Of a stretch of 52,333 bases of DNA, positions 31,718 through 52,333 are shown one piece after another. The stretch is from contig JAMDEN010000083.1 of assembly GCA_023487035.1 (NCBI GenBank), positions 1 to 52,333 on the forward strand, read 5' to 3'. Within the stretch, counting starts at the first letter, position 1. Each line of letters opens with the position of its first letter. The DNA is from Actinomycetota bacterium (lineage in GTDB: Bacteria > Actinomycetota > Humimicrobiia > Humimicrobiales > Humimicrobiaceae). Under the pieces are notes generated by a model that searched no databases, was not told where the DNA came from, and saw nothing but the letters and a program-made list of their open reading frames with translations. The translations under genes were made by a program, and so were the position numbers.

Positions 31718-31794
<77 letters not shown>

Positions 31795-32469: not shown

Positions 32470-32486
32470 AGTTTATCATCCCGTAA

Positions 32487-33593: not shown

Positions 33594-33613
33594 GTTATAC
33601 TATGTTGTATAAC
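33594..33613 (+). promoter_or_regulatory. Operator/promoter of the rightward AbrB/PIN module
   Basis: The perfect inverted repeat GTTATAC-N6-GTATAAC overlaps the -10 box TATACT (33596-33601). A -35-like TTGCAT lies 16 bases before the -10. Bound antitoxin or complex would cover the start of transcription. Confidence 0.6.
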
Positions 33614-33625
33614 AGAGGTGAAGGA

Positions 33626-34277: not shown

Positions 34278-34429
34278 AGAACAATAACTGTTTCCTACTT
34301 GGTCCTCAAAGTCAAGCAAAATTCCAGAGTAAAAAGGCATGAAAATTCAAACCTTAAGTAAAAAATTATTCAATTTCATATCGTACAATAAATTAATAAG
34401 TTTTTAATATTAATATCATATTATATAAT

Positions 34430-35159: not shown

Positions 35160-35202
35160 TATAATTAATCCTTACTTCTTACTCCTTACTTTATTTTATT
35201 GT

Positions 35203-35231
35203 ATTGTATTATTTTTTTTAAAAAGTAGCAA
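35203..35231 (-). promoter_or_regulatory. Possible promoter of the 34430-35159 AbrB/PIN module
   Basis: Minus-strand TTGCTA (35226-35231), 17-base spacer, TACAAT (35203-35208), the latter in a short TACAATACAAT tandem. It lies 44 bases before the antitoxin ATG. Confidence 0.4.
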
Positions 35232-35541
35232 TATATTTGTTTATGTGAATTTAAAACTATTCCATTATTTCAGATGAAAATTCCCTCTGCTATTAAAGGA
35301 ACCTGTTTAGTTTGCGAAACAAAAGTTTTTAAAATTAAATCGAACAAAAATCATTTAGGAGATTAAGAAAAATTTGAATAAATTTTTAAATTGCAATGGG
35401 TTTTATGTTTAATTCTAAATGAAGATTATTTTTTTTCTCCATAAAGTAGCATGCTTTTTGATTGAAATTTGTTACATTTTTCGATTGAAAAAACAGATGT
35501 TGAAAACGGTATGAAATCATTTAAGGGATTTTTATAATTTT
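35232..35541. other. Intergenic stretch between AbrB/PIN modules
   Basis: About 310 bases without an open frame, RNA fold or repeat that I can recognise. It is less A/T-extreme than other gaps and might be eroded gene sequence. Confidence 0.35.
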
Positions 35542-35988
35542 TTATGTTTGTTTTTTTACCAATTCTAAAAATTCTTTAGGAGTTAGTATTGTTATTGGTA
35601 GATTTGCCTGCCTTATAGCTTCTGTCTGAAAGTGCTTACGGTCTAAGGTAATAAGAAAATCGGATTTGCTTTCCAGGGCACTAACAAGCACATGGCGGTC
35701 CTTTAAAGCAATAACATCATCATACTGGCTTAGTTTTTCTTTAGTTGGTGGTTTAATAATGTCTGGATTAAGATTACCTATTTCCTTATAGAAACATAGG
35801 AGAGCTTCAGAGGATAACTTCTTGCGAACATTTCTCTGAGCTTCTAAGAGAATTTTCCGGGTTGTAACAGCAGAAAAGCAGAGTCCTCTACAAACCTCCA
35901 AAATTAAAGAAGAACCGCCACTGGCAGACCCTGCAGCAGCAACAAAAATAGAGGCATCCAGAAAAACTTTCTTCTTTTTCACAACCAT
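35542..35988 (-). CDS. PIN-domain toxin
   Basis: A 148-residue PIN-like protein of the type sometimes annotated as putative toxin/PIN_3. KKKVFLDASIFVAAAGSASGG gives the first Asp, AVTTRKILLEAQRNVRKK the Glu, ALKDRHVLVSALESKSDFLITLDRKHF the Asp-x(2)-H-x(4)-A motif and TLD. The end ITILTPKEFLELVK is also usual for this group. It follows its antitoxin gene with no overlap (one base apart). Lengthy Gly/Ser N-terminal loop (SGGSS) is a small oddity. Confidence 0.83.
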   Translation of the reverse strand: MVVKKKKVFLDASIFVAAAGSASGGSSLILEVCRGLCFSAVTTRKILLEAQRNVRKKLSSEALLCFYKEIGNLNPDIIKPPTKEKLSQYDDVIALKDRHVLVSALESKSDFLITLDRKHFQTEAIRQANLPITILTPKEFLELVKKQT

Positions 35989-35989
35989 A

Positions 35990-36280
35990 TTAAAGTTTCC
36001 CCTCAGTAAGAAGCCTTTTTACAGTTCTGACTGTTTCCTGATCTATCTTATCATCCTGTAGAAACTGGGAAATTTCTTTGTCAGTGTATTCCCTCAGTTC
36101 TTCCTCATCAACTTCCCGGACTATGGCAGGGACAATCTCTATTTTGTTCCCTTTTAAAGCAAGGCTTAAAATAGTATTGGAGTCTATTCCAAGTTTTTTA
36201 CGAAACTCTATCGGGATAGTGATTTGTCCTCTAGATAATGGTCTAACAAGTTTAGTCATAAGCTTTTCCCGCTCAGCCAA
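35990..36280 (-). CDS. AbrB-type antitoxin (probable TTG start)
   Basis: About 96 residues. TKLVRPLSRGQITIPIEFRKKLGIDSNTILSLALKGNKIEIVPA is the AbrB domain. The C-terminal half (EEELREYTDKEISQFLQDD...) is acidic and helical. The frame is open from 36310, but GAGGAGGT lies eight bases upstream of a TTG at 36280, which I take as the start; an ATG at 36259 is a second option. A promoter and a perfect inverted repeat lie directly upstream. Confidence 0.83.
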   Translation of the reverse strand: MAEREKLMTKLVRPLSRGQITIPIEFRKKLGIDSNTILSLALKGNKIEIVPAIVREVDEEELREYTDKEISQFLQDDKIDQETVRTVKRLLTEGKL

Positions 36281-36315
36281 TCTGAACACCTCCTCTTTTC
36301 GGATTATCAATAATA

Positions 36316-36350
36316 CGTATTTATTGTAATACGGAAATACTATTTGTCAA
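36316..36350 (-). promoter_or_regulatory. Promoter and operator of the 35542-36280 module
   Basis: Minus-strand TTGACA (36345-36350), 16-base spacer, TACAAT (36323-36328). The perfect inverted repeat CGTATT-N6-AATACG (36316-36333) covers the -10 box, a typical site for antitoxin self-repression. Confidence 0.65.
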
Positions 36351-36360
36351 TAATCAAAAT

Positions 36361-36765
36361 TTTAATTATATTCTCCCAGAGGCGCATACCAGATGAAAAT
36401 AAGCCAAAACATTAAAAAATAACTATAAGCATTAATATAACCAATATAACCAGATAATGAGTAAAGAAGCAAAGAAAAACAAAAACAGCCAGAGAAAGGC
36501 ACTTCTTTCTCTTATCTATCAGCCGGAACTATTTGATTTTATAAACACCAGTTCCTGAAATTAAAAGTTTTAACCTTTATAACGATTTTCATAAACACAG
36601 GCAGTAAAACTTACTCTTAGCATCTCTAAGGCATTTAAATAATACTCCTATGAAGATTTTAATGACCTTATACTCTGTAATTTTGCTTGATTTTGAAGAT
36701 TATTTACAAGTAGCAATATTTTTTAATTAAAATATAGTAAGTATGGTTTTAAGTCAATATAATGG
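36361..36765. other. Intergenic stretch with a possible 33-codon ORF
   Basis: About 400 bases without an identified gene. One short plus-strand frame, 36457-36558, would encode a 33-residue basic peptide beginning MSKEAKKNKNSQRKALLSL. It has no clear ribosome site and I do not recognise it; it may be a gene remnant. Confidence 0.25.
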
Positions 36766-37137
36766 CTATTTTTTAAAATATTTTACACTTTCTAAATCTT
36801 TAAAATGAGAGTCTTGGGTCCAGACTATTGCATCATACATCCTGGCAGTTGCATATATTATACTGTCAGCCATTGGCATTTTAAATTTTATGCTTAGCCT
36901 GGCTGCAAGAATTGATATTGAATTTGTTACATCTATAACTTTTGCCTGCTGCATTAACGCTGCAGCCTGGATAGCTTCATTTTCATCTTTTTCTGATAAT
37001 ACCTTTTTATATACTTCATATAAATTAATGACTGATATAATAACTTCAGTAGTATTTTCAATTACTGGAGCAAAGAATTCAGCATTATTGCCATCTGTAA
37101 AATATTCTAACCAAGCTGATGAATCAATTAAATTCAT
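36766..37137 (-). CDS. PIN-domain toxin (VapC)
   Basis: A 123-residue VapC: MNLIDSSAWLEYFTDG (first Asp), SVINLYEVYKKVL (Glu), KFKMPMADSIIYATARMYDAIVWTQDSHFKDL with the M-A-D-S-(I)-I-Y-A-T-A core and T-Q-D-x-x-F. All acidic positions are present. Its ATG overlaps the antitoxin stop codon by 4 bases. It is the most canonical VapBC pair of the island. Confidence 0.92.
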   Translation of the reverse strand: MNLIDSSAWLEYFTDGNNAEFFAPVIENTTEVIISVINLYEVYKKVLSEKDENEAIQAAALMQQAKVIDVTNSISILAARLSIKFKMPMADSIIYATARMYDAIVWTQDSHFKDLESVKYFKK

Positions 37138-39431: not shown

Positions 39432-40202
39432 ATGAAAAATATAGCAATTGTTTGTGATGTAATGAAGGGCGAGTTAGAAAGATTAAAAAGCCTTAAAAAA
39501 TTAAATAATTTAGATATTGTATTTCTTGAGCAACACTTGCATGACACTCCAGATAAAATGAGAGAAAAACTACAGGAAGAAATAAATAAGGTAGATGATA
39601 GATATGATAAGATAATACTGGGATATGGTCTGTGCAGCAACGGTGTTGTGGGGCTTAAATCAGATAAACATGAAATAATAATCCCTAAAGTAGATGATTG
39701 CATTAGCCTTTTTTTAGGTTCAAAAGAAAAATATATAGAGGAGTTTAAAAAGGATCCGGCAACATATTATCTATGTAAAGGATGGATTGAATACGGAAGT
39801 GACCCTTACAGGGGCTATCTGGTAAATACTGATCAGGAATATAAGATCCCGCAAGGATGGATAAGAAATAGAGAAAGATACGGAAGAAAAGGGATGGATG
39901 AGGAAACTTCCAAATTCCTTATAGCGCAGATGATGAGAAACTATAACAGGGTGCTTCTTATTGATAATAACGATCTTGAGGAAATCCATAGAAAATATGC
40001 CCAGGATATGGTCGATTTCCTTAGCAACCTCTTAGATAAAAAAATTGAGCTCGTTGAAATAAAGGCTTCACCCGAACTTTTAGAAAAACTATGTTGTAAT
40101 AAATGGAATGGAAATATTAATTACAAGGATAATGATTATATTAAAAATAACTTTGTCATTATCCCCAAAGGTAAGAAGGTATCCCAGGAAGAGTTTATGT
40201 AA
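39432..40202 (+). CDS. DUF1638 family protein
   Basis: A 256-residue protein of the DUF1638 family. Characteristic segments are IVCDVMKGELERL near the N-terminus, LEQHLHDTPDKMREKLQEEI (about residues 32-51), ILGYGLCSNGVVGL (about 62-75), IIIPKVDDCISLFLGSKEKY (about 81-100) and, later, YYLCKGWIEYGSDPYRGY. The GYGLCxNG and DDCI(x)LFLGS motifs are invariant in the family. Members occur mostly in methanogens, acetogens and other anaerobes, often near corrinoid-dependent methyltransferases, and are of unknown function. Here it stands alone, converging on an ATPase gene with an 8-base overlap of the 3' ends. GGGAG precedes the ATG. Confidence 0.85.
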   Translation: MKNIAIVCDVMKGELERLKSLKKLNNLDIVFLEQHLHDTPDKMREKLQEEINKVDDRYDKIILGYGLCSNGVVGLKSDKHEIIIPKVDDCISLFLGSKEKYIEEFKKDPATYYLCKGWIEYGSDPYRGYLVNTDQEYKIPQGWIRNRERYGRKGMDEETSKFLIAQMMRNYNRVLLIDNNDLEEIHRKYAQDMVDFLSNLLDKKIELVEIKASPELLEKLCCNKWNGNINYKDNDYIKNNFVIIPKGKKVSQEEFM

Positions 40203-41397
40203 TTTTTATATATGGTATTGACTTTAAAAATTCTTCCAAATCATAAATATTTTTAATCTCAACTTTCTTTTTACTGGTAATACTATTAAAAACATGTCTC
40301 TGTTTTTCATTCATTTCAGAATTATATTTGACTTCAATCAAAGTTTTATCATAAGTTAAGAAATCAATCTCAAACCCATCTTTATAAATATAACAGGGAT
40401 TGAAATTTTTGATTTTTAAATAAACATAATTTTCAAATAAACTACCAAGATCTTTAAATCCAGTAAAAAGAGATTTAATTCCAAGATCTGAAGCATAAAC
40501 TTTTTTTGGTGACAATATTTTTTCATTAGTTTTACCACATCTTGTAACAGTATATATTAAGTAAGATTCAATAAACATATCAAAATATCTTTTTGATGAA
40601 TCAGGAGAAATGTCTAAAATTTTCGCAATTTTATTTAAGCTCACCTGCTTGCCTACTCTTTCCATAAGAAGAATAAAAAAATCTTTGAGGATGCCTACAT
40701 TTTTGACTTTATATAAATTTGCAATATCTTTATTTATCACATCATCAACAAGTTCCTTTAAGTATTCAATATCTCCATTTAAAACATATTCTGGAATGCC
40801 CCCAGTTTTCATATAATCTTTAAAATATTCCTGAACCAAATTTAAATCCATCTTAGAAATTTTTATTTTCCTGAAATCAAGAAATTCCTCAAAATCAAGA
40901 GGCAATAATTCAATTAAAATATATCTTCCAACAAGATAAGGTTTTCTGCTTCTAAGAACTGAAGAACTTGAAGAACTTGCAAAAATTTTTACATTACTCA
41001 TGTCATAAAGATTTTTTAGTTGAATCTCATAATCATTTTTATAAGTTATTTCATCAAGAAAAACAAAAATTTTATCAGAAAAAGAAATCTTATGAATTTT
41101 TCTGTATTCTTCTATTATTTCAATTATGTTATTTTTTAATAACAAGTAATCATCAAGACTGATATAAAATATTTTATTGCGACTGATATTTTTATCTTCA
41201 AGTAATTTTTTGATCACTAATTTAAATATGGTAGTTTTTCCAACACGTCTTAAACCTGTAAGAAATATAATTTCTTTTGAAGATAATTTTTCAACAAGTA
41301 ACTTGGTAATATTTTTCCTGTCATATATATCTCTTAAAGTATAGTCCCCTTCCCACCAGGGATTATATCTGTAAAAGAGTTCCTCAAGATCTTCCAT
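40195..41397 (-). CDS. AAA ATPase with DUF4143 C-terminal domain
   Basis: A 400-residue ATPase of the AAA_14/DUF4143 type. Walker A GLRRVGKTT at residues 48-56, Walker B FVFLDEIT at 111-118, a sensor region FASSSSSSVL at about 139, a winged-helix segment at about 250-290, and a C-terminal nuclease-like motif FEIDFLTYDKTLIEVKYN (about 342-359), matching PD-(D/E)XK. Such proteins are common in archaea and anaerobes as single genes, often with a toxin-like or defence-like distribution; no established role. A strong promoter overlapped by an inverted repeat suggests self-regulation. AGGTGG lies before the ATG. Confidence 0.85.
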   Translation of the reverse strand: MEDLEELFYRYNPWWEGDYTLRDIYDRKNITKLLVEKLSSKEIIFLTGLRRVGKTTIFKLVIKKLLEDKNISRNKIFYISLDDYLLLKNNIIEIIEEYRKIHKISFSDKIFVFLDEITYKNDYEIQLKNLYDMSNVKIFASSSSSSVLRSRKPYLVGRYILIELLPLDFEEFLDFRKIKISKMDLNLVQEYFKDYMKTGGIPEYVLNGDIEYLKELVDDVINKDIANLYKVKNVGILKDFFILLMERVGKQVSLNKIAKILDISPDSSKRYFDMFIESYLIYTVTRCGKTNEKILSPKKVYASDLGIKSLFTGFKDLGSLFENYVYLKIKNFNPCYIYKDGFEIDFLTYDKTLIEVKYNSEMNEKQRHVFNSITSKKKVEIKNIYDLEEFLKSIPYIKIT

Positions 41398-41441
41398 CTT
41401 TCCACCTATTATTATTTTGGAATAATAAATTAGTTTTAATA

Positions 41442-41482
41442 ATTATACGTCTATATCGTATAAAATGTCAAATTATTATACG
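41442..41482 (-). promoter_or_regulatory. Promoter overlapped by a perfect palindrome, upstream of the AAA/DUF4143 gene
   Basis: Minus-strand TTGACA (41466-41471), 18-base spacer, TATAAT (41442-41447). TTATACG-N7-CGTATAA (41443-41463) is a perfect inverted repeat covering the -10, and a third half-site TTATACG lies at 41476-41482 upstream of the -35. Confidence 0.7.
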
Positions 41483-41523
41483 ATTTCAGTTTAAAATAGC
41501 AGAATTTAATTTATTATAATTGA

Positions 41524-42930
41524 TTAAAATATATAAGGTTCATCTTTATTTATTAAAAAAATGTTTTTTTCGTTTTTGGCTATTTTTATAAGGTCTTTTG
41601 TAAATCCTGAGCGCGAAAATAATATATAATATTCTTTTCTTTTTTCTTCTTCCCGCTTAACAAATGAGCTTTTCTTTTTTAATTCATACAATATATTTAT
41701 CCCTACCTTTTTATTTGACCATTTTGCTTCACCAAAAAGAATATTATTATTATCATTATTAATAGCAACAATATCAATTTCGATAGATTCCTTACCTATT
41801 GTATCCCACCAGCTTCCTATTTTTTGAAATTTAAGAACATCTTTTAATTTTACTTGAATAATTTCCTTGCAAACATCTTGATATATTAAAGATGTTGTAA
41901 AGTTAAATTGTTTATCAAAAAACTTAAAAATTTCATCCAAATCTCCAAATTCAATCTCACTTTTAAAAGGAAGTAGGTATTTAAACCAAAAATTTAAAAA
42001 TGGATCAATTATTTTGTATAAACCTTTGCGTGATTTCTCTGGTTTTTCTTCAGTTATCGGAACTCCCTTTCTAATTAACTGAAACTCTTCAAGAACATAT
42101 AAATATTTATGAATGGATGTTTTACTTAATCCGGTGTAATTTAATATTTCTCCAAATTTAGTTTTTCCAAGTGATAAAGCTTTAAGTATGGCAAAATAAA
42201 TTCTTAGCTCTGACAACTGCTCACTTAAAATAATATTTCCCTCATCATATAAAACTGAATTTTTATTAAAAATATTTTCTTTTAAGTTATCACGAAAAGA
42301 TATTTTAGGATTAAACTGTTTTAGATAAAGTGGGATACCTCCACATATTGAATATATATTTAGAAAATTATCAAAACTTAATTCAGGGAAAAACCCCCAT
42401 GCATCATAAAAATTTAAAGGTTTTAAAAATATTTGACCTGTTCTTCTTCCGTATAATGGTGCATTGTGTGCAATTGTTTCCTTAAGCATCATTGATATAC
42501 TTGAACCGCACAAAATTAAAAAAACAGGCAAATACTTTAATATTTCATCCCAACCCTTCTGAAAAACAGAGGATATTGCTTTATTGGATGAAAAAAGATA
42601 TGGAAATTCATCAATGGCTATAACTATTCTTTCTTTAACTGTATCTTTCAAAAAATTAAAAAACTGATACCAATCATTGAAACCATTTTCGATAACAATG
42701 GAACTTCCAAACTTGTTACCCACTATTCTGCCAAGGTTTCTTAGATTTTCTTTCTCTGTTGCTCTATCACATAAATAATAAATAGAATTTTTATTTTTTA
42801 AAAATTCCTTTATAAGCTCAGTTTTTCCAATTCTTCGCTTCCCATATATTATAATAAATTGAGACTCTTTCTTAACCCATATTTTATTTAGAAATTCCAG
42901 TTCTAATTTTCTGTCTATAAATTTATACAT
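41524..42930 (-). CDS. Archaeal-type ATPase with DUF234 C-terminal domain
   Basis: A 468-residue P-loop ATPase. Walker A GKRRIGKT is at residues 30-37, Walker B VIAIDEFPYL at about 103-112, and the sensor LILCGSSISMM at about 138-148. A winged helix (FGEILNYTGLSKTSIHKYLYVLEEFQLI) follows at about 259-286. The C-terminal DUF234 region carries EIDIVAINNDNNNILFGEAKWS (Asp386, Glu401, Lys403), a PD-(D/E)XK-like metal site. The family is widespread in archaea and anaerobic bacteria and of unknown role. It is the second of two ATPase-plus-nuclease-motif genes in a row, though the two are not close homologues. Confidence 0.85.
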   Translation of the reverse strand: MYKFIDRKLELEFLNKIWVKKESQFIIIYGKRRIGKTELIKEFLKNKNSIYYLCDRATEKENLRNLGRIVGNKFGSSIVIENGFNDWYQFFNFLKDTVKERIVIAIDEFPYLFSSNKAISSVFQKGWDEILKYLPVFLILCGSSISMMLKETIAHNAPLYGRRTGQIFLKPLNFYDAWGFFPELSFDNFLNIYSICGGIPLYLKQFNPKISFRDNLKENIFNKNSVLYDEGNIILSEQLSELRIYFAILKALSLGKTKFGEILNYTGLSKTSIHKYLYVLEEFQLIRKGVPITEEKPEKSRKGLYKIIDPFLNFWFKYLLPFKSEIEFGDLDEIFKFFDKQFNFTTSLIYQDVCKEIIQVKLKDVLKFQKIGSWWDTIGKESIEIDIVAINNDNNNILFGEAKWSNKKVGINILYELKKKSSFVKREEEKRKEYYILFSRSGFTKDLIKIAKNEKNIFLINKDEPYIF

Positions 42931-42992
42931 AATATTATAACAATGTTGTAATATAACCTGTATAATTTTAATAATTAACCCTTATTAAAATA

Positions 42993-43029
42993 TAGTCTAC
43001 TTTAAAGTAGTCTAATACAAAGTAGACTA
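42993..43029. promoter_or_regulatory. Cluster of 11-bp inverted repeats upstream of the DUF234 ATPase gene
   Basis: TAGTCTACTTT (42993-43003), AAAGTAGTCTA (43004-43014, one mismatch) and AAAGTAGACTA (43019-43029) form a nested palindrome, with CTACTTTAAAGTAG perfect at the centre. It lies 63-99 bases before the ATG of the ATPase gene. A dimeric repressor site is a reasonable guess. Confidence 0.5.
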
Positions 43030-43107
43030 AAATTCAAGTTTTATTGTATATCAGTTATGGCTCAGATATTACTCCTGCAAAGGAGCTTGAAAGACTGCTA
43101 AGGCAAA

Positions 43108-43671
43108 TTACTTATTTTTTTCTTTTAATAAATATTGTTTACCTAAATCAGTAATTTTCCAAATCCCTCTTTGAGAATCTGACGATAGCAATCCCTCATT
43201 CACCATAGTATTGCGACACCATTGTGCAGAATTTTCCCATCTTACCTGGTTGGGATTTGATAATAATGGTTCTTTATCATAATCATTTAAGCGATCCTTC
43301 ATCTTAATATAAACTTTTTGTAAAGCTTCTTTCATTTTTGCTTCACCATTTAATTCTACTAAAGTTTCTAAAATTGGAATCCTAAATTCTTTTTCATTTG
43401 TTTTTAGCCCTTTTTGTAATTTCTTCGATTTCTTTCTTCTTTTAATCTTTACAGGCAATTTTTCGATGAAAATGCTTTTCCATTCTTTTTGCAGTTCTTT
43501 TACTTTGTCTCTAAAAGCAATTAATTTTGTTGCATTTTCACTTAGAATTTTTGCTTTTTCATAATTTTGACTTTTAAATGATTTTTCGCCTTCATTATTT
43601 AATGAATCTAAGACATTTTCAATTTCACCTAATAATATTTCAAAAGCACTATTAACTTCATTCCTCTCCAT
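43108..43671 (-). CDS. Coiled-coil / Mrr_N-like winged-helix protein of the defence module
   Basis: A 187-residue protein. Residues 1 to about 70 are helical and probably coiled-coil (EILLGEIENVLDSLNNEGEKS ... VKELQKEW). A very basic linker follows (IKRRKKSKKLQKGLK, about 75-90). The C-terminal half, IPILETLVELNGEAKMKEALQKVYIKMKDRL ... RWENSAQWCRNTMVNEGLLSSDSQRGIWKITDLGKQYL, resembles the winged-helix domain found at the N-terminus of Mrr-type restriction proteins (PF14338): G-A/E-A-K-x-x-E-x-x-x-V, W-x-(x)-x-x-W-x-R-x-x-(x)-x-x-x-G-L-L, G-(I/V)-W-x-(I/L)-T-x-x-G. It starts 39 bases after the helicase stop codon and is probably the last gene of the same transcript. A DNA-binding or regulatory role is inferred. 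Confidence 0.65.
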   Translation of the reverse strand: MERNEVNSAFEILLGEIENVLDSLNNEGEKSFKSQNYEKAKILSENATKLIAFRDKVKELQKEWKSIFIEKLPVKIKRRKKSKKLQKGLKTNEKEFRIPILETLVELNGEAKMKEALQKVYIKMKDRLNDYDKEPLLSNPNQVRWENSAQWCRNTMVNEGLLSSDSQRGIWKITDLGKQYLLKEKNK

Positions 43672-43710
43672 AAAAGCCTCCTAAGAAAAATAAATAACTT
43701 AAAAAAAATA

Positions 43711-46700
43711 TTATTTTTTTACTAATATTTCCCCGCAAATAACTTTAGGTATCTCTTGCTTTTCCAGGTCTATGGTTTTTCTTTCTTTAAGTAAGTCAAA
43801 TTCATTTACTATTCTTATCAGTTCACTTATAAGTTCATTATCTGACAATCTCTTCCTATAAAATATTCTAAGCTTTTTATTTATACCAGTTGGTATAACT
43901 GATGAGAATATCTTAATTAAATTTGAAATAGTTAATTTTCTTTGCTCGTATTCTTCACTAAATTCGTTTAAATTGTTTAATAACATTTCCAATTCTTTTA
44001 ATACATAATCCTGCTCTCTTGTTCTGCTTTTAAATTTTCTATCTTTATCTAATTGACTTTCTTTCATCTTTTTCCTGAAAACGTCAAATGTTTTAGAAAT
44101 AATACTATTTGCCTTGCTTGGCAATTCTTTTAATCCAATCTCATTAGGGTCAGCTTTAACCAGCCTTATAGCTTCATCTTCATTCTGGCTAATAATTTCG
44201 CCATTTTCATCAGTTATATAGAAAGAATAATGTTTCCCCAATCTGCATAAAATAACATACTTGTTTTCATCAGTTTTCCTGATACACCTTACACCATCCT
44301 GCATATTTTTTATCTTTTCAAATAATTCAGGATTATTGTCCTGAAGCTGTCTAATCACGCCTTCAGCTTCACTGATTATGAATTCTTTCTCATCAAAAAT
44401 TTTCTCATCCCTTATATCATAAATTGCATACATATCATTCGGATTTAAAATTTCATTGTCATCAAGATACTTACCGTCCTCACCAAATATATTGTGAATT
44501 TCCTGAATTCTTTTTGAAACCCTTTCTCTAATACCCAATTTTTCTTCAAGTTTTGCTTCAGGCAAGAAATTATAAACAAATATTTCATCCTGCTCCGAGC
44601 CAATTCTGTCAACTCTTCCAACTCTTTGAATTAACCTGACAGGATTCCAATGAATATCATAATTTATAATTACATTACAATCTTGAAGATTTTGTCCTTC
44701 GCTTAACACATCCGTTGAAATAAGAATGTTTATCTGATTATTAAAATCATTTTCAGTTCCATCATTTGCCTTAGGCGAGAACCTTCGTACAATTGAAACA
44801 AGATTAACTGTCTCACTGCTAACTTTCTCAATCTCACCATTAAAATCATTTCCCAGGTTTTCATAAATATATTTTGTAGTATCCGTAAACTGAGAAAATA
44901 TTAGTATTTTTTTATTTTTCTGTTTTATTTCTTTAATTTTTACTTTTAACTGATTAAGTTTATCATCATTTTGAGCCGTAATATTAGCAATGATATTTTT
45001 TATTTCTCTAAATATATTTAAATCATTTAAAAGATCACTTTTTAACTTTTCTATTTCAAAGGCATATATTTCATATTTTTCACCATGTGCTTCAATGATT
45101 TTTTCCAGCTCTCCAGTAAAATCAATCTCATTATCAAGATATTCATCAGTACCATAAATAAAAGATTGAGCTTTATCGCCTATAGGTAAAAGCTTAAGAT
45201 TATCTATTGCTTCTAAATATACTTCATGAATCCTTATCATTGTATTAATTGTTTTTCTGAATGCTTCAATACTGCTTTCAATTCTTTTAAGTAATAATAC
45301 TTTTACAAATCCTCTTAAATTTTTACCGGCATTTTTTAACTCTCTATAAGGACTTTTTCCGTTAAATTCTTTTTTAACATAAGAAAACAAGTTATATCTT
45401 GCATATTTTAATGAACTTAAATAATTTAAAATTTCAGAATACATATTGCTGTAAACATTTTCTATGCTGTAATTTATTGGCTCAGGGATATTTCTTTTTG
45501 GGAAGACTATTGGTTTTCCATTTATTTTTTCATCAGGATAATATTTTTTTATGTGAGCCCTTGTTCTTCTTATTAGAAGATGCTCAAGAAGAGACTGTAA
45601 ATTTACTTTTTTTTCTATTGCTAAATTAATAAATTCCTTAATATTTGCAGGCGTAATCGGAATATCTGTTTCATCTTCATGATGAAATAACTTTATCTGG
45701 TTATATATATCCATTGGAGAATTATTTTGAGGGGTGGCACTCATTAAAATTAATTTCTTATCATAAGGTAAAAGAAATTCAGATAAATTTTTATATCTAT
45801 TATTTTCATTATTTCTAAAATTATGTGATTCATCTATTAATATTATTTCTTTATCTATATATCTTTTTAATCTTGAAAGTCCATCACTTAGGCTTAACTC
45901 CCCTATGGAAATAATTTCAGCACCTAAATCATAAATATTATTGTAGCTTTGCCACATCTGCAAAAGTCTTGGTGGACAAATGATAAGAGCTCTTTTTCCT
46001 TTTTTATGATAATAATCGATAAGAGCAGATCCAATATAGCTTTTACCTAAACCAACTACATCAGATATGAAAACCCCATTATGTTTTTCAAGCATATTAA
46101 TTGCAAGAGCAACAGCTCTTTTCTGAAACTTTGCAAGATCAATAAAAATATCACTATCACCTAATATGAGTTCATCGCTATCTTCCAGCCTGTCTTTGAC
46201 AAGATTGTATAAAATCTTCAGATATATTTCATAAGGAGTTGGATAATTAATAGCCCAGGAATTATTGATTTCAGTAAGCATTTGTTCACTAAAATCTTCA
46301 CTATCATCCCATAGTTTTTCAAACCATTTTGTTAAATATTCATGTTCTCCTTTGCCTTCAATCAGAACATTTAGTTCAGTATTATGGGTTAACCCGGCAA
46401 GGGTAAAGTTTGAAGAACCAACAATAGCAACTCCATCTTCCACAATATTTACCGGATTTCCATCATTATCAAATAATTGTTTTTTATAATCAAAAATATA
46501 TGCTTTTGAATGAAGCTTGTTTTTTAGATAAACTTTAAACCTTATTTTTTTTTCTTTTATAAAATCAGCAAGTCTTTTTAAAGTTAATTCATTTTCATTG
46601 GTGACTTCTGAAGTTTCTATCGATAACCTTACATCGCTTTTTGCATTCTCAATTAAAGGCTCCTTGGCTCTTTTGGTTAATTTTTTATCATTGTTTTCAA

Positions 46701-46950
46701 TTTCCTTAGCAGCATCATCTAAATATCTATAACCTAATGCTATCTCTTCTATGGTTTCTTTATTTGAACTATTGCCAATTATAATATCTATATTTTCAAG
46801 TTTATCTAATTTATTTATCAGGTGGTTAAATCCTTTAATAAAAAAATATCCTGTGGCTATTTTCAAAGATTTGGACATAAGTATGTAGGATTCAATCCTA
46901 TTTAACAAGGAATTTTCTCCTGTAGAATTATCTATTATTCTATGCTGCAC
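43711..46950 (-). CDS. PLD nuclease-SNF2/SF2 helicase fusion
   Basis: A 1079-residue protein with an N-terminal phospholipase-D-like nuclease domain (about 1-230): LHSKAYIFDY (HxK(x)4D, residues 146-155) and VGSSNFTLAG (about 178-187). The helicase part has DVVGLGKSYIG (Walker A, about 297-307), LIDESHNF (DExH box, 371-378), LMSATPQNN (motif III, 402-410), the Snf2-like C-lobe ILIFSQFTDTTKYIYENLG, ILISTDVLSEGQNLQ, and QRVGRVDRIGS (motif VI, 775-785). A long helical region lies between the lobes. The ATG follows the methyltransferase stop codon after 2 bases, so the two are coupled. The fusion could translocate on DNA and cut it. The same architecture occurs next to adenine methyltransferases in defence islands. 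Only one HKD motif is seen, so the enzyme may dimerise. Confidence 0.88.
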   Translation of the reverse strand: MQHRIIDNSTGENSLLNRIESYILMSKSLKIATGYFFIKGFNHLINKLDKLENIDIIIGNSSNKETIEEIALGYRYLDDAAKEIENNDKKLTKRAKEPLIENAKSDVRLSIETSEVTNENELTLKRLADFIKEKKIRFKVYLKNKLHSKAYIFDYKKQLFDNDGNPVNIVEDGVAIVGSSNFTLAGLTHNTELNVLIEGKGEHEYLTKWFEKLWDDSEDFSEQMLTEINNSWAINYPTPYEIYLKILYNLVKDRLEDSDELILGDSDIFIDLAKFQKRAVALAINMLEKHNGVFISDVVGLGKSYIGSALIDYYHKKGKRALIICPPRLLQMWQSYNNIYDLGAEIISIGELSLSDGLSRLKRYIDKEIILIDESHNFRNNENNRYKNLSEFLLPYDKKLILMSATPQNNSPMDIYNQIKLFHHEDETDIPITPANIKEFINLAIEKKVNLQSLLEHLLIRRTRAHIKKYYPDEKINGKPIVFPKRNIPEPINYSIENVYSNMYSEILNYLSSLKYARYNLFSYVKKEFNGKSPYRELKNAGKNLRGFVKVLLLKRIESSIEAFRKTINTMIRIHEVYLEAIDNLKLLPIGDKAQSFIYGTDEYLDNEIDFTGELEKIIEAHGEKYEIYAFEIEKLKSDLLNDLNIFREIKNIIANITAQNDDKLNQLKVKIKEIKQKNKKILIFSQFTDTTKYIYENLGNDFNGEIEKVSSETVNLVSIVRRFSPKANDGTENDFNNQINILISTDVLSEGQNLQDCNVIINYDIHWNPVRLIQRVGRVDRIGSEQDEIFVYNFLPEAKLEEKLGIRERVSKRIQEIHNIFGEDGKYLDDNEILNPNDMYAIYDIRDEKIFDEKEFIISEAEGVIRQLQDNNPELFEKIKNMQDGVRCIRKTDENKYVILCRLGKHYSFYITDENGEIISQNEDEAIRLVKADPNEIGLKELPSKANSIISKTFDVFRKKMKESQLDKDRKFKSRTREQDYVLKELEMLLNNLNEFSEEYEQRKLTISNLIKIFSSVIPTGINKKLRIFYRKRLSDNELISELIRIVNEFDLLKERKTIDLEKQEIPKVICGEILVKK

Positions 46951-46952
46951 GA

Positions 46953-49900
46953 TTAAACACTTCCTGCTTTATTTAATCTATTTTGAACTAATTCACAAAC
47001 TGCCCAATATACTTCTTTTCTCTCTTCTTCAGTTAAGCCTAAAATATCGAAAATAATATCATCTAATGCTTTACGATCTGGAAGAGGATTTGGTTCTTGG
47101 GAACGAATTGGAATTTTTGGGTTAAAACCACATTCCTCAAAAATAGATAATATTTTTCGTGATAAAAATCCTTTATTAATTTTTTCTAATATTTTATTAT
47201 TTAAAAATTCTGGATTTAATACAAAAATTCTCTCTGCTTCATAAACTTTAAAATCAAGTGCTCCTTCTCCTAGATTTGTTCTTGCTCCTAATTCAATGAA
47301 AATTGGAGTAATTGAAGAATTCAATATGACTGTTAAAATATCATAATCTTTTTGATTATATAAATAAATATCATATAGCCTAGCATCTACTAAATTATTT
47401 TTGTTTTGCCAAAATATGTGTCTATCATTAAAACTCATCATACAAAAAAAATCGCTATTTTCAGATACTTTTAAACTACTCCAATTATGTCTATTTGAAC
47501 ATGTTGGTCTCTTATGAAAATTTTGTCTTTCCCCCCATTCAATGTATTTTAAAGTATAGGTATCTTTGAGCTCCTGTTTGGATTTATTGCATAGAAAAAC
47601 TTTGTACTTTAAATCTTTGGGATTAATTATAATTGACTTACATTCTCTTGGAGATTTAATAACAGGTTTTAAAAATTCTTCTTCAATAAAGCCCTCCCAT
47701 CCAGCACCATTTCTAACATGTAAAAGCCCTTTAGGGGCTGGTTTTCCAGTAGGCTCAACGTAGAAGAATTCATTTGCACCAGTTTTAATTCCAAATCTTA
47801 CTTCTGCAACTTCTTTCAATGGAATTAATTTACCTTTTCCTTTTTCCAGTATCTTATAATAAATATCTGGGGCTCTTAAATATTTTCCTCCCCATTTTGA
47901 ACCTGTATATTTGCCAATATTATCCTTATAATCAATTTCATTTTCATCATTTTCAATACCTTCTTCTAAAAGATCTTTCTGGCTTTTAACAATCATTCTA
48001 TAGTATTCGTTATTTATTAGATCATTTTTTAAATAAATTTCTAAAATATTTTTTAGTGTTATAGAGTTCTCAAATGCAGTTTTGTGATTTATAAATTTAA
48101 CCTTATTTAACAAGACATCATAATTTTTCTCAGGTTTTCCAATTGAAATAATTATTGTGTTTATATCAGCACTTTTAAAAGACCTTTTAGCTGAGTTATC
48201 ATGAATGTCTATAATCCTGAAATTTTTTAAAAGAAATTCCTGAAGGAAAACTCCATATCCTACATCAAGCCATGAAGTAGAATTTATAAAAGTAAAAATA
48301 CCTTTTTCTTTTAGCAATGAAAGAGAGATAAAATAAAAATAAACATAGTAATCTGACTTTTTATCAAATTTACTAATTTTTTCTTTCCCATAAATATTAA
48401 TAACATTATTTATTAATTTTTCTTTATAATGGCTTTTAATCTCAACGCTAATCTTATCTTTTTCAATTAAAGGTGGGGCTATCTCTTCCTGTCTAATATA
48501 AGGTGGGTTCCCGATTACTATATCAAAACCCCCTTTTTGCACTTCAAAGAAAACATCAGCAAAATCAAGATCCCATATAAAGAAGCCTTTACCTTTTAGT
48601 TCAGAGATTTTATTAATAATATTATCAATTCTTTCAATCTCCAAATTTAGATTTTTCTCATTTAGTTCTCTTTCTAATCTAAATTTATATAGATCAGCCT
48701 TTTCCTTTGTACTGCTTTCAAAAAGCTGTGATGGATCTGCAACTTTTTCAGCATTATAAAGTAACTCAAATTCTCTAATTAAATCCCGTTTTTTAAGAAT
48801 AAGGATGGATTTTATTATTTCCCTCTCTTTTTCTTCAATATCTTGTTTAGTGATATTAGAATCGTCATGATAATAATATCTTAACTTTAAATCCTTTAGC
48901 TCTTTTATATCTTTTAGTATTTTAGGATTAGTTTTATTAGCAGAATTAGTATCCCTTAATATAATTTGGTAACCCTCTATTTCAGATAGCAGACTGTCAC
49001 CATGTCTAATTTTAAAATCAAGAGATGGTAGTATTGGATTATAACCAAAATTGGTAATACTTCCTTCATAATCTCCAATAAGATAAAGCCAAAGCCGCAG
49101 TTCTGCAATCTGAACAGCCCAAGGTTTTATATCAACTCCATGGATTACTTTCTCTATTAAATCCTTTTTTAATTTAAAAATTTGTTCAAAAAAATGAATC
49201 TCAGATTCAAAAATGTTGATGTTTTCCAGTTTAATAAAAATATTTATTATATTTTGAAGTATACCTATAAGAAAAGCACCGGAGCCGCATGCCGGATCAA
49301 CAACTTTCATATTGTTTAATGCTCTTGATATAAGTTCTTTTTCTGAAAGAGTGAGGGTTTCAGAGTAATTCTCAGATTCTTCTTCTAAATAATGTTCAGA
49401 AAATATTAAATTAATAAGTTTTTTAAGGTCGACTTTTGTCTCTGAACTTAGAAAATGCAATAGTGATTTTTTGCACATAAAATCAACTTCAATTCGAGGA
49501 GTATAGAATATGCCTGAACCTGATCTTTCATCTGAATTTACTATTCCCTCATAAATAAGGCCCAGCATTTCCGGATCTATTGCAATTTCTCTATCAAATG
49601 GAGTATCTTCAGTTATTGTAAAATTATATCTATTTATTATTTCAGAAAATATTTCATTTATAAATTCATCACTAATTGCAGCTTCATTAATATCAAGTTC
49701 GCTTTTCTCAAATAAGCCTCCATTTAAATATGGAAGTTTTTCAAATTCAATAATAAGCTTCGGGGAAAGATTTTTTGGCATATATTCTTTATGCTTTGAA
49801 AAAGCATAAAAAAATAAAGGCTGAAATATATCAATATAAATTGAAGAATTCAGGTTAGGGTTTTCTGAAATATAAGATTTATACCTTTTTAATAATTCCT

Positions 49901-50594
49901 CTAAAAAATTGGGATTATTATTTAACCATTTTTTCTTTTCAATATATTTTAAAAATAAAATACGGTTAAAAAACTGGAGAGCAAATGCTTTTGATTGCTG
50001 CAAATCATTAAAATATTTATAGAAATTTTCAGACAGCTTATCCACATATTTTTTTATTATTGCAAAAAACTCTTCTGTTACTGGTTCTATGTCAAATATT
50101 TTATTACTACTTATGTGTTTTATAATATCAGCCTTTGAATAGTTATTGCCTATCTCAAGCTTTGCAATCTGCTCTGAAGCCGTCCTTAGTTTTTCACTTT
50201 TTGCAATTGTGTAACTCGATAGTTTGATGTTATCCTCAGATTTAACAGATACATAAGTAATTTTAAATATATTTTCAGAATTATTTGAAAAAACTATGAT
50301 ACAATCAGTTTTCTTTGAAATTTTTCTGGAAATCTCTCTTTGAATAATGCGGCCTTTATTTAAATCTGGTAATTTTAATTTACAGAAAAATATAAAAAAA
50401 TTATCAACCTCATTAATTAAATTTATAGAGTCAATATTATCTTTTAATTTGGAGCTGATAAAGTCTTGTACTAAATTAATTTCGGATTGCAATGAGGTAG
50501 TTGGTTCAAAATTTAATTCAGTAAATAGATTCTGGACATCCTGCTTTGAATTAAGGTTGTGAAAAATTGTAAATACTTCTTTCGGATCCATCAT
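46953..50594 (-). CDS. Eco57I-type adenine-specific DNA methyltransferase
   Basis: A 1213-residue N6-adenine methyltransferase of the Eco57I/TaqI-like type. The N-terminal 340 residues are helical, with no clear PD-(D/E)XK motif. EMLGLIYEGIVNSDERSGSGIFYTPRIEVDFM precedes motif I, VVDPACGSGAFLIGIL (about 431-446). HGVDIKPWAVQIAELRLWL is motif II-III. The catalytic NPPY motif is at 696-699, after FDIVIG. Residues about 905-1130 (VRFGIKTGANEFFYV) form a TaqI-like target-recognition domain. About 150 residues of extra helical sequence (approximately 545-680) lie before the NPPY motif. It methylates one strand of a target and probably provides both modification and specificity for the helicase gene that follows 2 bases after. 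Confidence 0.92.
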   Translation of the reverse strand: MMDPKEVFTIFHNLNSKQDVQNLFTELNFEPTTSLQSEINLVQDFISSKLKDNIDSINLINEVDNFFIFFCKLKLPDLNKGRIIQREISRKISKKTDCIIVFSNNSENIFKITYVSVKSEDNIKLSSYTIAKSEKLRTASEQIAKLEIGNNYSKADIIKHISSNKIFDIEPVTEEFFAIIKKYVDKLSENFYKYFNDLQQSKAFALQFFNRILFLKYIEKKKWLNNNPNFLEELLKRYKSYISENPNLNSSIYIDIFQPLFFYAFSKHKEYMPKNLSPKLIIEFEKLPYLNGGLFEKSELDINEAAISDEFINEIFSEIINRYNFTITEDTPFDREIAIDPEMLGLIYEGIVNSDERSGSGIFYTPRIEVDFMCKKSLLHFLSSETKVDLKKLINLIFSEHYLEEESENYSETLTLSEKELISRALNNMKVVDPACGSGAFLIGILQNIINIFIKLENINIFESEIHFFEQIFKLKKDLIEKVIHGVDIKPWAVQIAELRLWLYLIGDYEGSITNFGYNPILPSLDFKIRHGDSLLSEIEGYQIILRDTNSANKTNPKILKDIKELKDLKLRYYYHDDSNITKQDIEEKEREIIKSILILKKRDLIREFELLYNAEKVADPSQLFESSTKEKADLYKFRLERELNEKNLNLEIERIDNIINKISELKGKGFFIWDLDFADVFFEVQKGGFDIVIGNPPYIRQEEIAPPLIEKDKISVEIKSHYKEKLINNVINIYGKEKISKFDKKSDYYVYFYFISLSLLKEKGIFTFINSTSWLDVGYGVFLQEFLLKNFRIIDIHDNSAKRSFKSADINTIIISIGKPEKNYDVLLNKVKFINHKTAFENSITLKNILEIYLKNDLINNEYYRMIVKSQKDLLEEGIENDENEIDYKDNIGKYTGSKWGGKYLRAPDIYYKILEKGKGKLIPLKEVAEVRFGIKTGANEFFYVEPTGKPAPKGLLHVRNGAGWEGFIEEEFLKPVIKSPRECKSIIINPKDLKYKVFLCNKSKQELKDTYTLKYIEWGERQNFHKRPTCSNRHNWSSLKVSENSDFFCMMSFNDRHIFWQNKNNLVDARLYDIYLYNQKDYDILTVILNSSITPIFIELGARTNLGEGALDFKVYEAERIFVLNPEFLNNKILEKINKGFLSRKILSIFEECGFNPKIPIRSQEPNPLPDRKALDDIIFDILGLTEEERKEVYWAVCELVQNRLNKAGSV

Positions 50595-50726
50595 TATTTA
50601 AAAATATTAATTTAAATAATTATATGTACTATTAACAAGTTAGGTTAACAGTTAGCTCTTTGAAAAAATCAAAGGCCATGTAAACACTTTTGGTATAAAA
50701 CTAGATTTTTATAATACCCATTCTAT

Positions 50727-51503
50727 CTATCTCGATAATGTTAATTTCTTTTTTATTAATGTCCCATTTTTAATATGATAATTAATTTCATGATCAAGAC
50801 AAAAATTAATAATTTGATCGCTTAGTTTATTATAATAATTAATTCTATCCATATATTTCGTAACCATGGCATTATAATTTAATTTTCCAAAAATAATCTT
50901 ATTCACAAAAGATATTGATTCTAATATTTTTTTGAAATCCTGGACTAAAATGTTTGGTGTAGGATAAGGTTCAATACTAACCCAGGTTTTAAAACCTTTT
51001 CTATGCAGATGATAAAGACTCTCAATTCTTTTAAGATAAGGTGCAGAAAAAGGTTCATATTTTAGCCTGAAGATTTCATTTAAGGAGATTAATGTAATAC
51101 CATATTCATTTTCTTCTGATAGCTCAGAAAGTGCTTCCGGTAAAATTCCTTTAGTAAGAACAGTGCATTTTATATTATTTTTATTTAATTTTTCTACTAC
51201 CTGAAAACTTAAATCCATGACTTTTTTTTGATTATACATGAAGGGATCAGTTGAAAAACAAAGGTGGACAAACTTTATTTTGTTTTTAAATTTTGGAATT
51301 TCCTCATCTAATAATTCTAATGTATTAGAGACTATTTCTGGCCGAATCCATTCTTCATAATTTTTCACCTTGCCAAACCTTTTTGCCATTAAAAATGCAT
51401 AACAAGGATATTTACAGCCATGAGAACATCCTTGAATATGGTTAATGGTATAATCACCATATTCAACACCTGTCTTATATAATAAAGTTTTTCTGGTAAT
51501 CAT
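50727..51503 (-). CDS. Radical SAM protein (SplB/COG1533-like)
   Basis: A 258-residue protein with GCSHGCKYPCYAFLMAKRFG near the N-terminus (Cys26, Cys30, Cys34), which would bind a 4Fe-4S cluster. The spacing is Cx3Cx3C, one residue longer than the usual Cx3Cx2C of the family. FVHLCFSTDPFMYNQKK, CTVLTKGI and KTWVSIEPYPTPN are the later barrel strands; they resemble spore-photoproduct-lyase-like and COG1533 proteins. It lies 132 bases upstream of the methyltransferase gene, in the same direction. Family members occur in mobile and defence-linked clusters, sometimes with a TcmP-like partner; none is seen here. Substrate unknown. Confidence 0.85.
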   Translation of the reverse strand: MITRKTLLYKTGVEYGDYTINHIQGCSHGCKYPCYAFLMAKRFGKVKNYEEWIRPEIVSNTLELLDEEIPKFKNKIKFVHLCFSTDPFMYNQKKVMDLSFQVVEKLNKNNIKCTVLTKGILPEALSELSEENEYGITLISLNEIFRLKYEPFSAPYLKRIESLYHLHRKGFKTWVSIEPYPTPNILVQDFKKILESISFVNKIIFGKLNYNAMVTKYMDRINYYNKLSDQIINFCLDHEINYHIKNGTLIKKKLTLSR

Positions 51504-51686
51504 TCGCTATGAATTAATTATTTTTTAGAATAAAACAATTTTATACTTGAACCTTGCCAACTGTTTGTCAGTTTAAAAAATATTTTATTCTCTTTATAAA
51601 ATAAAAACAATTAATATAACATATAAATATTAAAGAGAATTAAAAAGATTAAAGTTTTATTTTTTATTAAATAAAAAATTTTTAAC

Positions 51687-51704
51687 TTATACGTCCCTGT
51701 GACA
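51687..51704. repeat. 18-bp dispersed repeat (REP-like), copy 2, in the 3' end of the GNAT gene
   Basis: TTATACGTCCCTGTGACA is identical to 37581-37598. Read on the minus strand it supplies the last five codons and the TAA stop of the GNAT frame. Confidence 0.6.
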
Positions 51705-52333
51705 ATTTTTTGTAATAGGTGAACGTGTAGTAAGCTCTCTTTTTGAAAATAATCTTTCAAATAAAGATTGCTCTTTCTCTGTAACTTTTTCTATTGTAGT
51801 TAAATCAAGCCTTACAAGCGGGAAATATTCATCATTTTTTCTAATTAAAAAACCATTTTTTATAAGAAATTTTAAAGGAATTAAATGAACATTTCCAAAT
51901 TCTTCTTCATCAATATCTTCATTTTGTCTTTTTGCAATTGCTTCTATTGATTTTCTTCCCTGCTCTAATGTATCCTTTTCAATTGAAAGAAGCAATCTCT
52001 CACCAACGCCAAAGTCTTCATATTCGGGTTCAATAAACATACATGCAACAAATATACTTTCACCATCAGGGGGATAAATAAAAAATTCTTTTAATCTGGG
52101 AAATAAATAATAATCTCCGTAAATTACCGCACCTATTATGTTGTTTTTATTTACGTATGCAATTTTTATTTTACCGCCGTTTTTAATAAAAAACTCTACC
52201 TTATTGCTGTTGTGGCTATTATTATTTTTTATTTCAAATAGTTTTGACTTAAAAAAATTTAAAAACTTTTGTGATTTTTGCAGTTCCTCTATAATACCTA
52301 ACTTACTTAATCTGTTAATTTCAAACCAGTAAT
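51687..52333 (-). CDS. GNAT family N-acetyltransferase, partial (N-terminus outside the window)
   Basis: The frame is open from the window edge at 52333 to the stop codon at 51687, giving at least 215 residues; an internal Met at 52040 is not the real start. IAYVNKNNIIGAVIYGDYYLFPRL, then ESIFVACMFIEPEYEDFGVGERLLLSIEKDTLEQGRKSIEAIAKRQ, is a GNAT fold: the strand pair, then the acetyl-CoA loop (x-x-G-(V)-G-x-x-L-L) and the following helix. Comparable proteins with an FPR...PPDGE...VACMFI pattern are common in Actinobacteria. The last residues (CHRDV) come from a dispersed 18-bp repeat that also supplies the stop codon, so the C-terminus may be altered. Confidence 0.75.
   Translation of the reverse strand, partial: YWFEINRLSKLGIIEELQKSQKFLNFFKSKLFEIKNNNSHNSNKVEFFIKNGGKIKIAYVNKNNIIGAVIYGDYYLFPRLKEFFIYPPDGESIFVACMFIEPEYEDFGVGERLLLSIEKDTLEQGRKSIEAIAKRQNEDIDEEEFGNVHLIPLKFLIKNGFLIRKNDEYFPLVRLDLTTIEKVTEKEQSLFERLFSKRELTTRSPITKNCHRDV

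What the first reader, a model, noticed from the sequence alone, without database searches (positions are those of the whole stretch)
43108..51503. Four-gene defence-like module: radical SAM, Eco57I methyltransferase, PLD-SNF2 helicase, Mrr_N-like winged helix
All four genes are read leftward; the last three are separated by only 2 and 39 bases. The methyltransferase keeps motif I and NPPY, the helicase has an N-terminal HKD nuclease motif and complete SF2 motifs, and the small gene has a winged helix like that of Mrr restriction proteins. This is not classical type I, II or III, nor BREX (no PglZ or BrxC in the window), and it lacks the DrmA and DrmB of DISARM although it shares methyltransferase, SNF2 and PLD parts. 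A radical SAM enzyme directly upstream could supply an extra nucleic-acid modification. Inference: a compact methylation-guided restriction system whose nuclease is fused to its motor.
Basis: partly seen in the sequence, partly recalled or inferred. Interest (0 to 1): 0.75.

Follow-up and report, generated by a model that had tools for sequence, protein, structure and literature searches.

The report
Two-gene restriction system with optional partner
The two large genes are a widespread but barely studied bacterial and archaeal anti-virus pair, in which one protein marks the cell's own DNA and the other is a DNA motor fused to a cutter; a small DNA-binding gene is an occasional third part shared with another defence system, and the fourth gene (radical SAM) is probably just a neighbour.

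Summary
All four genes exist as described, but only two form the core. The HKD(PLD)-SNF2 motor-nuclease and the Eco57I-type m6A methyltransferase (MTase) are a linked pair: in 80 related loci from many phyla, 74 have the MTase beside the motor on the same strand; the other 6 have cut flanks. Active-site motifs are intact and nearly invariant, and the MTase N-terminus has no conserved nuclease residues. The genome carries a second such pair. The pair is not new: it was described in 2018 on a Lactococcus plasmid as a putative type II system, and PADLOC has an 'HKD+Snf2' profile. The Mrr_N-like protein is a real but optional accessory: absent from all 80 loci, yet its orthologues sit beside HKD-SNF2+MTase in three Chloroflexota loci (three gene orders) and downstream of ARMADA type I-like clusters in Actinomycetota. 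I found that link in none of the papers read. The radical SAM gene does not belong: its relatives mostly pair with a TcmP-like gene, never with HKD-SNF2. Best reading: ATP-dependent restriction-modification in which the MTase supplies specificity and self-marking and the motor carries the nuclease. Known kind, with one unrecognised accessory.

The parts
46953..50594 (-). Eco57I-type (gamma-class) N6-adenine MTase with C-terminal specificity region, 1213 aa; modification and specificity subunit (core)
   Evidence: Pfam Eco57I 4e-28; model pLDDT 79, closest PDB folds CamA, PglX/BrxX, M.BseCI, BpuSI, MmeI
49275..49298 (-). MTase motif I, residues 433-440 DPACGSGA (SAM binding)
   Evidence: D433 and G437 conserved in 70/70, S438 and G439 in 69/70 MTases
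48498..48509 (-). MTase motif IV, residues 696-699 NPPY (catalysis)
   Evidence: N and first P 70/70, second P 69/70; Y/W/F at the last position
43711..46950 (-). HKD(PLD)-SNF2 motor-nuclease, 1079 aa (core)
   Evidence: Pfam PLDc_2, SNF2, Helicase_C; PADLOC C3a139 HKD+Snf2 2.2e-71
46408..46512 (-). HKD nuclease motif, residues 147-181 (HSK...GSSN)
   Evidence: H, G, S, S, N conserved in all 90 rows that cover them; K in 90 of 91 (one R); the D of HKD is not conserved
46039..46062 (-). Walker A (motif I), residues 297-304 DVVGLGKS
   Evidence: G300, G302, K303 invariant 91/91
45823..45834 (-). Walker B / DExH box, residues 373-376 DESH
   Evidence: D, E, H invariant 91/91
44605..44628 (-). SF2 motif VI, residues 775-782 QRVGRVDR
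   Evidence: Q, R, G, R (775, 776, 778, 779) invariant 91/91
43108..43671 (-). Mrr_N winged-helix protein, 187 aa (optional accessory)
   Evidence: Pfam Mrr_N 1e-17; full-length orthologues beside HKD-SNF2/MTase or ARMADA-like loci
43459..43665 (-). N-terminal helical hairpin of the Mrr_N protein, residues 3-71
   Evidence: single-sequence AlphaFold model, block pLDDT 59-82 in this part only; conserved in alignment A2
43129..43389 (-). Mrr_N winged-helix domain, residues 95-181
   Evidence: Pfam
50619..50648 (-). sigma70-like promoter match upstream of the MTase (TTAACC-18-TATAAT)
   Evidence: consensus match only; the scan finds almost as many in shuffles
50727..51503 (-). radical SAM protein, 258 aa; neighbour, judged not part of the system
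   Evidence: relatives mostly pair with TcmP-like genes, none with HKD-SNF2

Best explanation
The core is a two-subunit, ATP-dependent restriction-modification system. The Eco57I-type MTase carries the specificity region and methylates one adenine in an asymmetric site, marking host DNA. On unmethylated DNA the same MTase, bound to its site, would recruit or license the SNF2 protein, which translocates on duplex DNA and cuts with its HKD domain (probably as a dimer, since each chain has one HKD half-site). The motor takes its specificity from the MTase. The small Mrr_N protein (helical hairpin plus winged helix) is an optional DNA-binding accessory, either an adaptor or an operon regulator. 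The radical SAM gene is an independent neighbour. Shown here: linkage, invariant motifs, fold class of the MTase, and accessory status of the Mrr_N gene. Inferred: complex formation, translocation, cleavage and self/non-self logic.
For: 74/80 HKD-SNF2 loci have the MTase on the same strand, mostly 0-50 bp away; the 6 without one lie on short or cut contigs. The second copy in the same genome keeps the pair in reversed order. HKD and SF2 motifs 90-91/91, MTase motifs 69-70/70, no conserved catalytic residues in the MTase N-terminus. MTase fold matches CamA, PglX/BrxX, M.BseCI, BpuSI, MmeI. On pSYSX of Synechocystis the pair's MTase is one of only two DNA MTase loci annotated in 1-100.5 kb, so by elimination it is M.Ssp6803IV, reported to make GAm6AGGC (PMC6604393, PMC7296061). 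On a Lactococcus plasmid the MTase's specificity end has a divergent inverted copy next to a serine invertase; switching it would be self-destructive unless the nuclease follows the MTase's specificity.
Against: No restriction or anti-phage test of this pair was found. The D of HKD is not conserved, and the nuclease activity is inferred. A motor-MTase pair could also block phage without cutting, as proposed for BREX. The link from the pSYSX MTase to GAAGGC rests on elimination, and the inverted Lactococcus copy was seen in one orientation only.
Confidence: 0.74

Rival explanations
1. BREX/DISARM-like mechanism: the MTase marks self and the SNF2 motor blocks replication or entry of unmarked phage DNA; HKD cleavage is secondary or absent.
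For: The MTase model resembles PglX/BrxX; the motor's relatives in PADLOC/NCBIfam include DrmD, BrxHI/HII and DpdE; ARMADA, which shares SNF2 and PglX-like parts, protects by a direct, non-abortive mechanism (PMC12458937).
Against: The HKD residues are invariant in 90/90 sequences, as expected for a working nuclease; no PglZ, BrxC, DrmA or DrmB gene among the other proteins scanned.
Confidence: 0.17
2. The MTase is a self-sufficient type IIG restriction enzyme and the SNF2 protein is a separate gene carried along.
For: PADLOC and REBASE-style annotation file the MTases as type IIG (PMC6098607). The MTase N-terminus has an alpha/beta layout in the model.
Against: No acidic or lysine position is conserved in the N-terminal domain. 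The near-obligate linkage, with gaps of a few bases or overlaps in several gene orders, argues for joint function.
Confidence: 0.05
3. The four genes form one system in which the radical SAM enzyme adds a nucleic-acid modification.
For: Same strand and adjacent in the window; in a congeneric genome a 49% relative is the last gene of an MTase-Piwi-SIR2 operon.
Against: Only one marginal radical SAM match among 80 HKD-SNF2 neighbourhoods; 8 of 13 close relatives examined sit beside a TcmP-like gene and none beside HKD-SNF2; 132-bp gap with a promoter-like site.
Confidence: 0.04
4. On the accessory only: the Mrr_N protein is a transcriptional controller of the operon (like a C protein), not a subunit acting on phage DNA. 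Compatible with the main explanation.
For: Small winged-helix DNA-binding protein, often a standalone gene (10 of 13 Chloroflexota full-length loci have no HKD-SNF2 nearby), present in several unrelated operons.
Against: Its place in the operon varies (last, middle, after the MTase), unlike most C proteins; Mrr_N in Mrr enzymes addresses target DNA (general knowledge).
Confidence: 0.45

Closest known systems
Putative type II RM operon of Lactococcus plasmid pLd8 (orf33 PLD-SNF2, orf34 type IIG-like MTase with TaqI_C; PMC6098607)
   Same: The same two domain architectures side by side; those authors also proposed that the PLD domain of the SNF2 protein does the cutting.
   Different: No Mrr_N gene is mentioned; I did not compare the pLd8 proteins directly, only a related Lactococcus plasmid (L232).
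PADLOC profile C3a139 'HKD+Snf2' (PDLC01075)
   Same: Window motor matches over aa 13-997 of 1079 at 2.2e-71.
   Different: A protein model only; the window's second copy, the pSYSX motor and the Lactococcus motor give no PADLOC hit at 1e-60.
DISARM class 1 (DrmD, DrmMI, DrmA, DrmB, DrmC)
   Same: SNF2 motor, Eco57I/PglX-like MTase and a PLD nuclease.
   Different: No DrmA/DrmB gene found; PLD fused to the motor; NCBIfam DrmD score 132.6 against a cut-off of 610.
ARMADA type I (PMC12458937)
   Same: SNF2 motor plus PglX-like MTase; ARMADA-like loci in the same phylum carry the same Mrr_N protein.
   Different: ARMADA needs a YprA helicase with a C-terminal nuclease; none is seen in the window, and no PLD domain was called in the ARMADA-like SNF2.
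BREX-related type 2 system (DUF499, DUF3780, N6-MTase, HKD-SNF2; PMC12839542); NCBIfam phospholipD_antiphage appears to be a related motor
   Same: HKD-SNF2 motor with an N6-MTase, proposed to act as RM.
   Different: No DUF499 or DUF3780; MTase is Eco57I-type, not DUF1156-type; helicase scores 149.7 against a cut-off of 1100.
Type ISP / type I / type III ATP-dependent RM
   Same: Proposed logic: MTase-directed specificity, motor, cleavage.
   Different: Nuclease is HKD rather than PD-(D/E)XK, and the motor is SNF2; two separate chains.

Membership tests
HKD-SNF2 + Eco57I MTase pair (pLd8-type, PMC6098607) | SNF2 helicase with N-terminal PLD/HKD nuclease | tested here: met
HKD-SNF2 + Eco57I MTase pair (pLd8-type, PMC6098607) | Adjacent m6A-type MTase with no nuclease domain of its own | tested here: met
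HKD-SNF2 + Eco57I MTase pair (pLd8-type, PMC6098607) | C-terminal target-recognition domain (TaqI_C) | tested here: inconclusive
   TaqI_C is called in relatives L215 and L216 but not in the window MTase at 1e-3; the fold match to CamA/BseCI is long enough to cover MTase plus recognition region
DISARM | drmA and drmB | tested here: not met
   no such gene among proteins 40195-52331; contig ends at 52333
BREX | pglZ and brxC | tested here: not met
   no such hit among proteins 40195-52331; contig end caveat
ARMADA | YprA-family helicase with MZB/DUF1998 | tested here: not met
   none beside the pair in the window; present in L141/L148, L144/L150
BREX-related type 2 | DUF499 ATPase and DUF3780 | tested here: not met
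   no match
Type IIG RM | active nuclease in the MTase chain | tested here: not met
   no conserved catalytic positions in the N-terminus; activity itself not tested
Any restriction system | methylation-sensitive cleavage and phage restriction | not testable with these tools
   needs experiments
Radical SAM / TcmP pair | adjacent TcmP-like (GMT-wHTH) gene | tested here: not met
   window neighbour 51687-52331 has no Pfam match and does not look TcmP-like; most close relatives have the TcmP-like gene

The most novel reading that the evidence does not exclude
The Mrr_N hairpin/winged-helix protein is a portable subunit that plugs into two different MTase+SNF2 defence machines (HKD-SNF2 pairs and ARMADA type I), reads DNA or its modification state and gates the motor. 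If so, it is an interchangeable sensor linking restriction-modification to the DISARM/ARMADA family.
Probability: 0.25. Interest if true: 0.62.

Novelty: new variant of a known kind. Interest (0 to 1): 0.42.

Why it matters
The HKD-SNF2 + MTase pair occurs in many bacterial phyla and in archaea. HKD-SNF2-like motors were found in 100 of 400 sampled Chloroflexota genomes, and the MTase was adjacent in 74 of 80 loci elsewhere. Yet it appears in annotation as 'helicase-related protein' or 'type IIG', and I found no functional test of it. Showing that it is a unit with a swappable specificity end, and that a small Mrr_N protein recurs in both it and ARMADA-like loci, gives concrete and cheap experiments and a candidate shared subunit between two defence families.

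Tried and rejected
The first genome-contig scan with the single motor sequence found nothing; the alignment query worked. A viral-contig scan and the phage collection gave no Mrr_N relatives. A first pass with non-overlapping ORFs missed Mrr_N genes overlapping other ORFs, so the count was redone on all ORFs. Four-gene module: rejected. DISARM, BREX, BREX-related type 2 and ARMADA membership: rejected on missing parts. The single-sequence structure of the Mrr_N protein was poor beyond the hairpin and its PDB matches were not significant. A claim that the MTase N-terminus is a dead PD-(D/E)XK domain was considered but left as unproven.
Full report
What is there. Four ORFs on the minus strand: Mrr_N protein 43108-43671, HKD-SNF2 43711-46950, Eco57I MTase 46953-50594, radical SAM 50727-51503, with gaps of 39, 2 and 132 bp. 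The contig ends at 52333, 830 bases beyond the radical SAM gene, so anything further upstream is unknown. The genome is a 2.2-Mb draft (79.7% complete). It holds a second copy of the pair on contig 145: motor 1067 aa, MTase 1155 aa, order reversed, 2-bp gap, about 32% identical, with neither Mrr_N nor radical SAM.

The pair is a unit. With a profile built from the MTases, 74 of 80 loci have an MTase on the same strand; the gap is usually a few bases, in either order, and up to about 4 kb where other genes are inserted. The six loci without one (L044, L088, L089, L096, L107, L111) lie on contigs of 3.3-12.3 kb where at least one flank is cut, so they do not speak against linkage. Plasmid records show the same pair in Halorussus, Thermococcus, Pelobacter, Synechocystis, Lactococcus and Thermus. 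In the Thermococcus and Synechocystis cases other genes lie between.

Active sites. Across 91 motors the HKD residues H147, G178, S179, S180 and N181 are conserved in all 90 rows that cover them, and K149 in 90 of 91; the aspartate is not conserved. Walker A, the DExH box, motif VI and the arginines at 461/462 are 91/91. Across 70 MTases D433 and G437 of motif I and NP of NPPY are 70/70. In the MTase N-terminus only five positions reach 60% identity and none is acidic or lysine. So the conserved nuclease of the system is in the motor. The MTase model (pLDDT 79, 24-sequence alignment) is closest to CamA, PglX/BrxX, M.BseCI, BpuSI and MmeI, which act on or contain DNA adenine MTases.

What the MTase does. 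Two pieces of outside evidence. First, on pSYSX of Synechocystis PCC 6803 the pair's MTase (SGL_RS01600) is one of only two DNA MTase loci annotated between 1 and 100.5 kb; the other is the type I system at 88-98 kb. The literature places M.Ssp6803IV and V on pSYSX (PMC6604393), gives V to the type I genes and GAm6AGGC to IV (PMC7296061). By elimination the pair's MTase makes an asymmetric m6A mark. This is an inference; the original paper was not available. Second, on a Lactococcus plasmid (L232, CP016750) the MTase is followed by an inverted 263-aa specificity copy and a serine recombinase annotated as an Mpi-type invertase; the shared segment is 75% identical over 270 bp and the rest diverges. 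A switchable MTase specificity is tolerable only if restriction follows the same specificity. Only one orientation was seen.

The Mrr_N protein. With three profiles it is absent from all 80 loci. Full-length orthologues exist in 6 of 397 sampled Actinomycetota genomes (phylum assigned from the neighbours' biology; own genome included) and in 13 of 400 Chloroflexota genomes. Of these 19, one (G153) sits at a contig end and cannot be judged. Eight of the other 18 lie within 10 kb of an Eco57I-type MTase, seven of them with an SNF2 motor also seen: the window; L209 (MTase-Mrr_N overlapping by 4 bp, HKD-SNF2 3.4 kb on); L215 (MTase, Mrr_N, HKD-SNF2 in direct succession); L216 (HKD-SNF2, MTase, Mrr_N); and four loci in the window's phylum with ARMADA type I-like genes (L141, L142, L144; L145 shows the MTase only because the contig ends). 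In Chloroflexota 3 of 13 full-length loci are within 10 kb of a motor, where about 0.03 is expected; binomial P about 3e-6, assuming about 3.5 Mb per genome and independent loci. The converse is weak: about 4 of 129 motor loci in that phylum have it, one of them a fragment. So it is an optional accessory. In the motor tree four of five Mrr_N-bearing rows fall in one 18-row clade with the window; the label needs four changes on the tree and is only weakly clustered (36 of 500 shuffles as low). Other Mrr_N relatives sit beside a ResIII/TnsA-like protein (L207), an SbcC-like ATPase (L214) and, as a weaker match, a type III-like pair (L147), or stand alone.

The radical SAM gene. Thirteen loci with close relatives (mostly 49-59% identical) were examined: twelve fetched plus L037 from the window's own class. 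In eight the neighbour is a TcmP-like protein (L169-L172, L174, L175, L178, L037), a three-Cys-motif-partner-like protein by my reading, with a GMT-wHTH domain above Pfam's cut-off in L171; none has HKD-SNF2. One congeneric genome has MTase-Piwi-SIR2-radical SAM. Together with the 132-bp gap this makes it a mobile neighbour of defence islands rather than part of this system.

An accessory slot. Genes between or directly beside the pair differ from locus to locus. By annotation, Pfam or my reading of their sequences they include an AbiEii-like gene, a YhcG nuclease (Pfam), VapC (annotated), DarT/DarG-like, Bro/RhuM-like, OLD-like plus RloB-like, SIR2-like and Schlafen-like genes. The Mrr_N protein is one of several such additions.

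What is known. The two-gene arrangement was described in 2018 on Lactococcus plasmid pLd8 as a putative type II system with cutting assigned to the PLD-SNF2 protein and a resemblance to DISARM class 1 noted (PMC6098607). PADLOC has an HKD+Snf2 profile that the window motor matches at 2e-71. Related HKD-SNF2 or HKD-SF2 effectors occur in DndE/CxC-ABC (PbeABCD) systems (PMC10853773) and BREX-related type 2 systems (PMC12839542), with other partners. None of the papers read describes the Mrr_N accessory; the ARMADA paper's main text has no mention of Mrr. Searches covered open-licence papers only.

Verdict. A real and widespread kind of system, already on record though uncharacterised; the window adds a three-gene variant whose small protein is shared with ARMADA-like loci. 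The radical SAM gene should be dropped from the module.

Noticed in passing
G000 contig 145, L003:4072-10745: Second HKD-SNF2 + MTase pair in the same genome, reversed order; a TIR-like gene (L003:2631-3872, by reading the sequence) lies next to it on the other strand.
   Followed up: partly
L035:297-7748 (G024, same genus): Apparent operon of Eco57I-type MTase, Piwi-domain protein (687 aa), SIR2-like protein and radical SAM: an argonaute-like gene with a DNA methyltransferase.
   Followed up: partly
L232:5425-10230 (Lactococcus plasmid, CP016750): Inverted alternative specificity end for the MTase next to an Mpi-type serine recombinase: a likely specificity switch in an HKD-SNF2 system.
   Followed up: partly
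L169-L172, L174, L175, L178, L037: Recurrent two-gene unit of TcmP-like protein and DUF5131-like radical SAM; the window copy and near relatives carry a Cx3Cx3C cysteine motif.
   Followed up: partly
window 40195-42930: Two adjacent AAA ATPases (AAA_14/DUF4143 and ATPase_2/DUF234) matching PADLOC candidate families PDC-S01 and PDC-S27.
   Followed up: no
window 29799-37137: Cluster of toxin-antitoxin-like genes (antitoxin-like, PIN-like and AbrB-like ORFs, by reading) and a transposase/integrase-core-like ORF (30442-31068), suggesting a mobile or defence island that runs towards the locus.
   Followed up: no
L047:2031-3700; L071:8166-9913; L123:16626-17807: DarT/DarG-like, OLD/RloB-like and SIR2-like genes (by reading) inserted in or beside the pair: a variable accessory slot.
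   Followed up: partly
L207:9178-12644; L214:9199-14097: Mrr_N family members directly beside a ResIII helicase with a TnsA-like end, and beside an SbcC-like ATPase.
   Followed up: no
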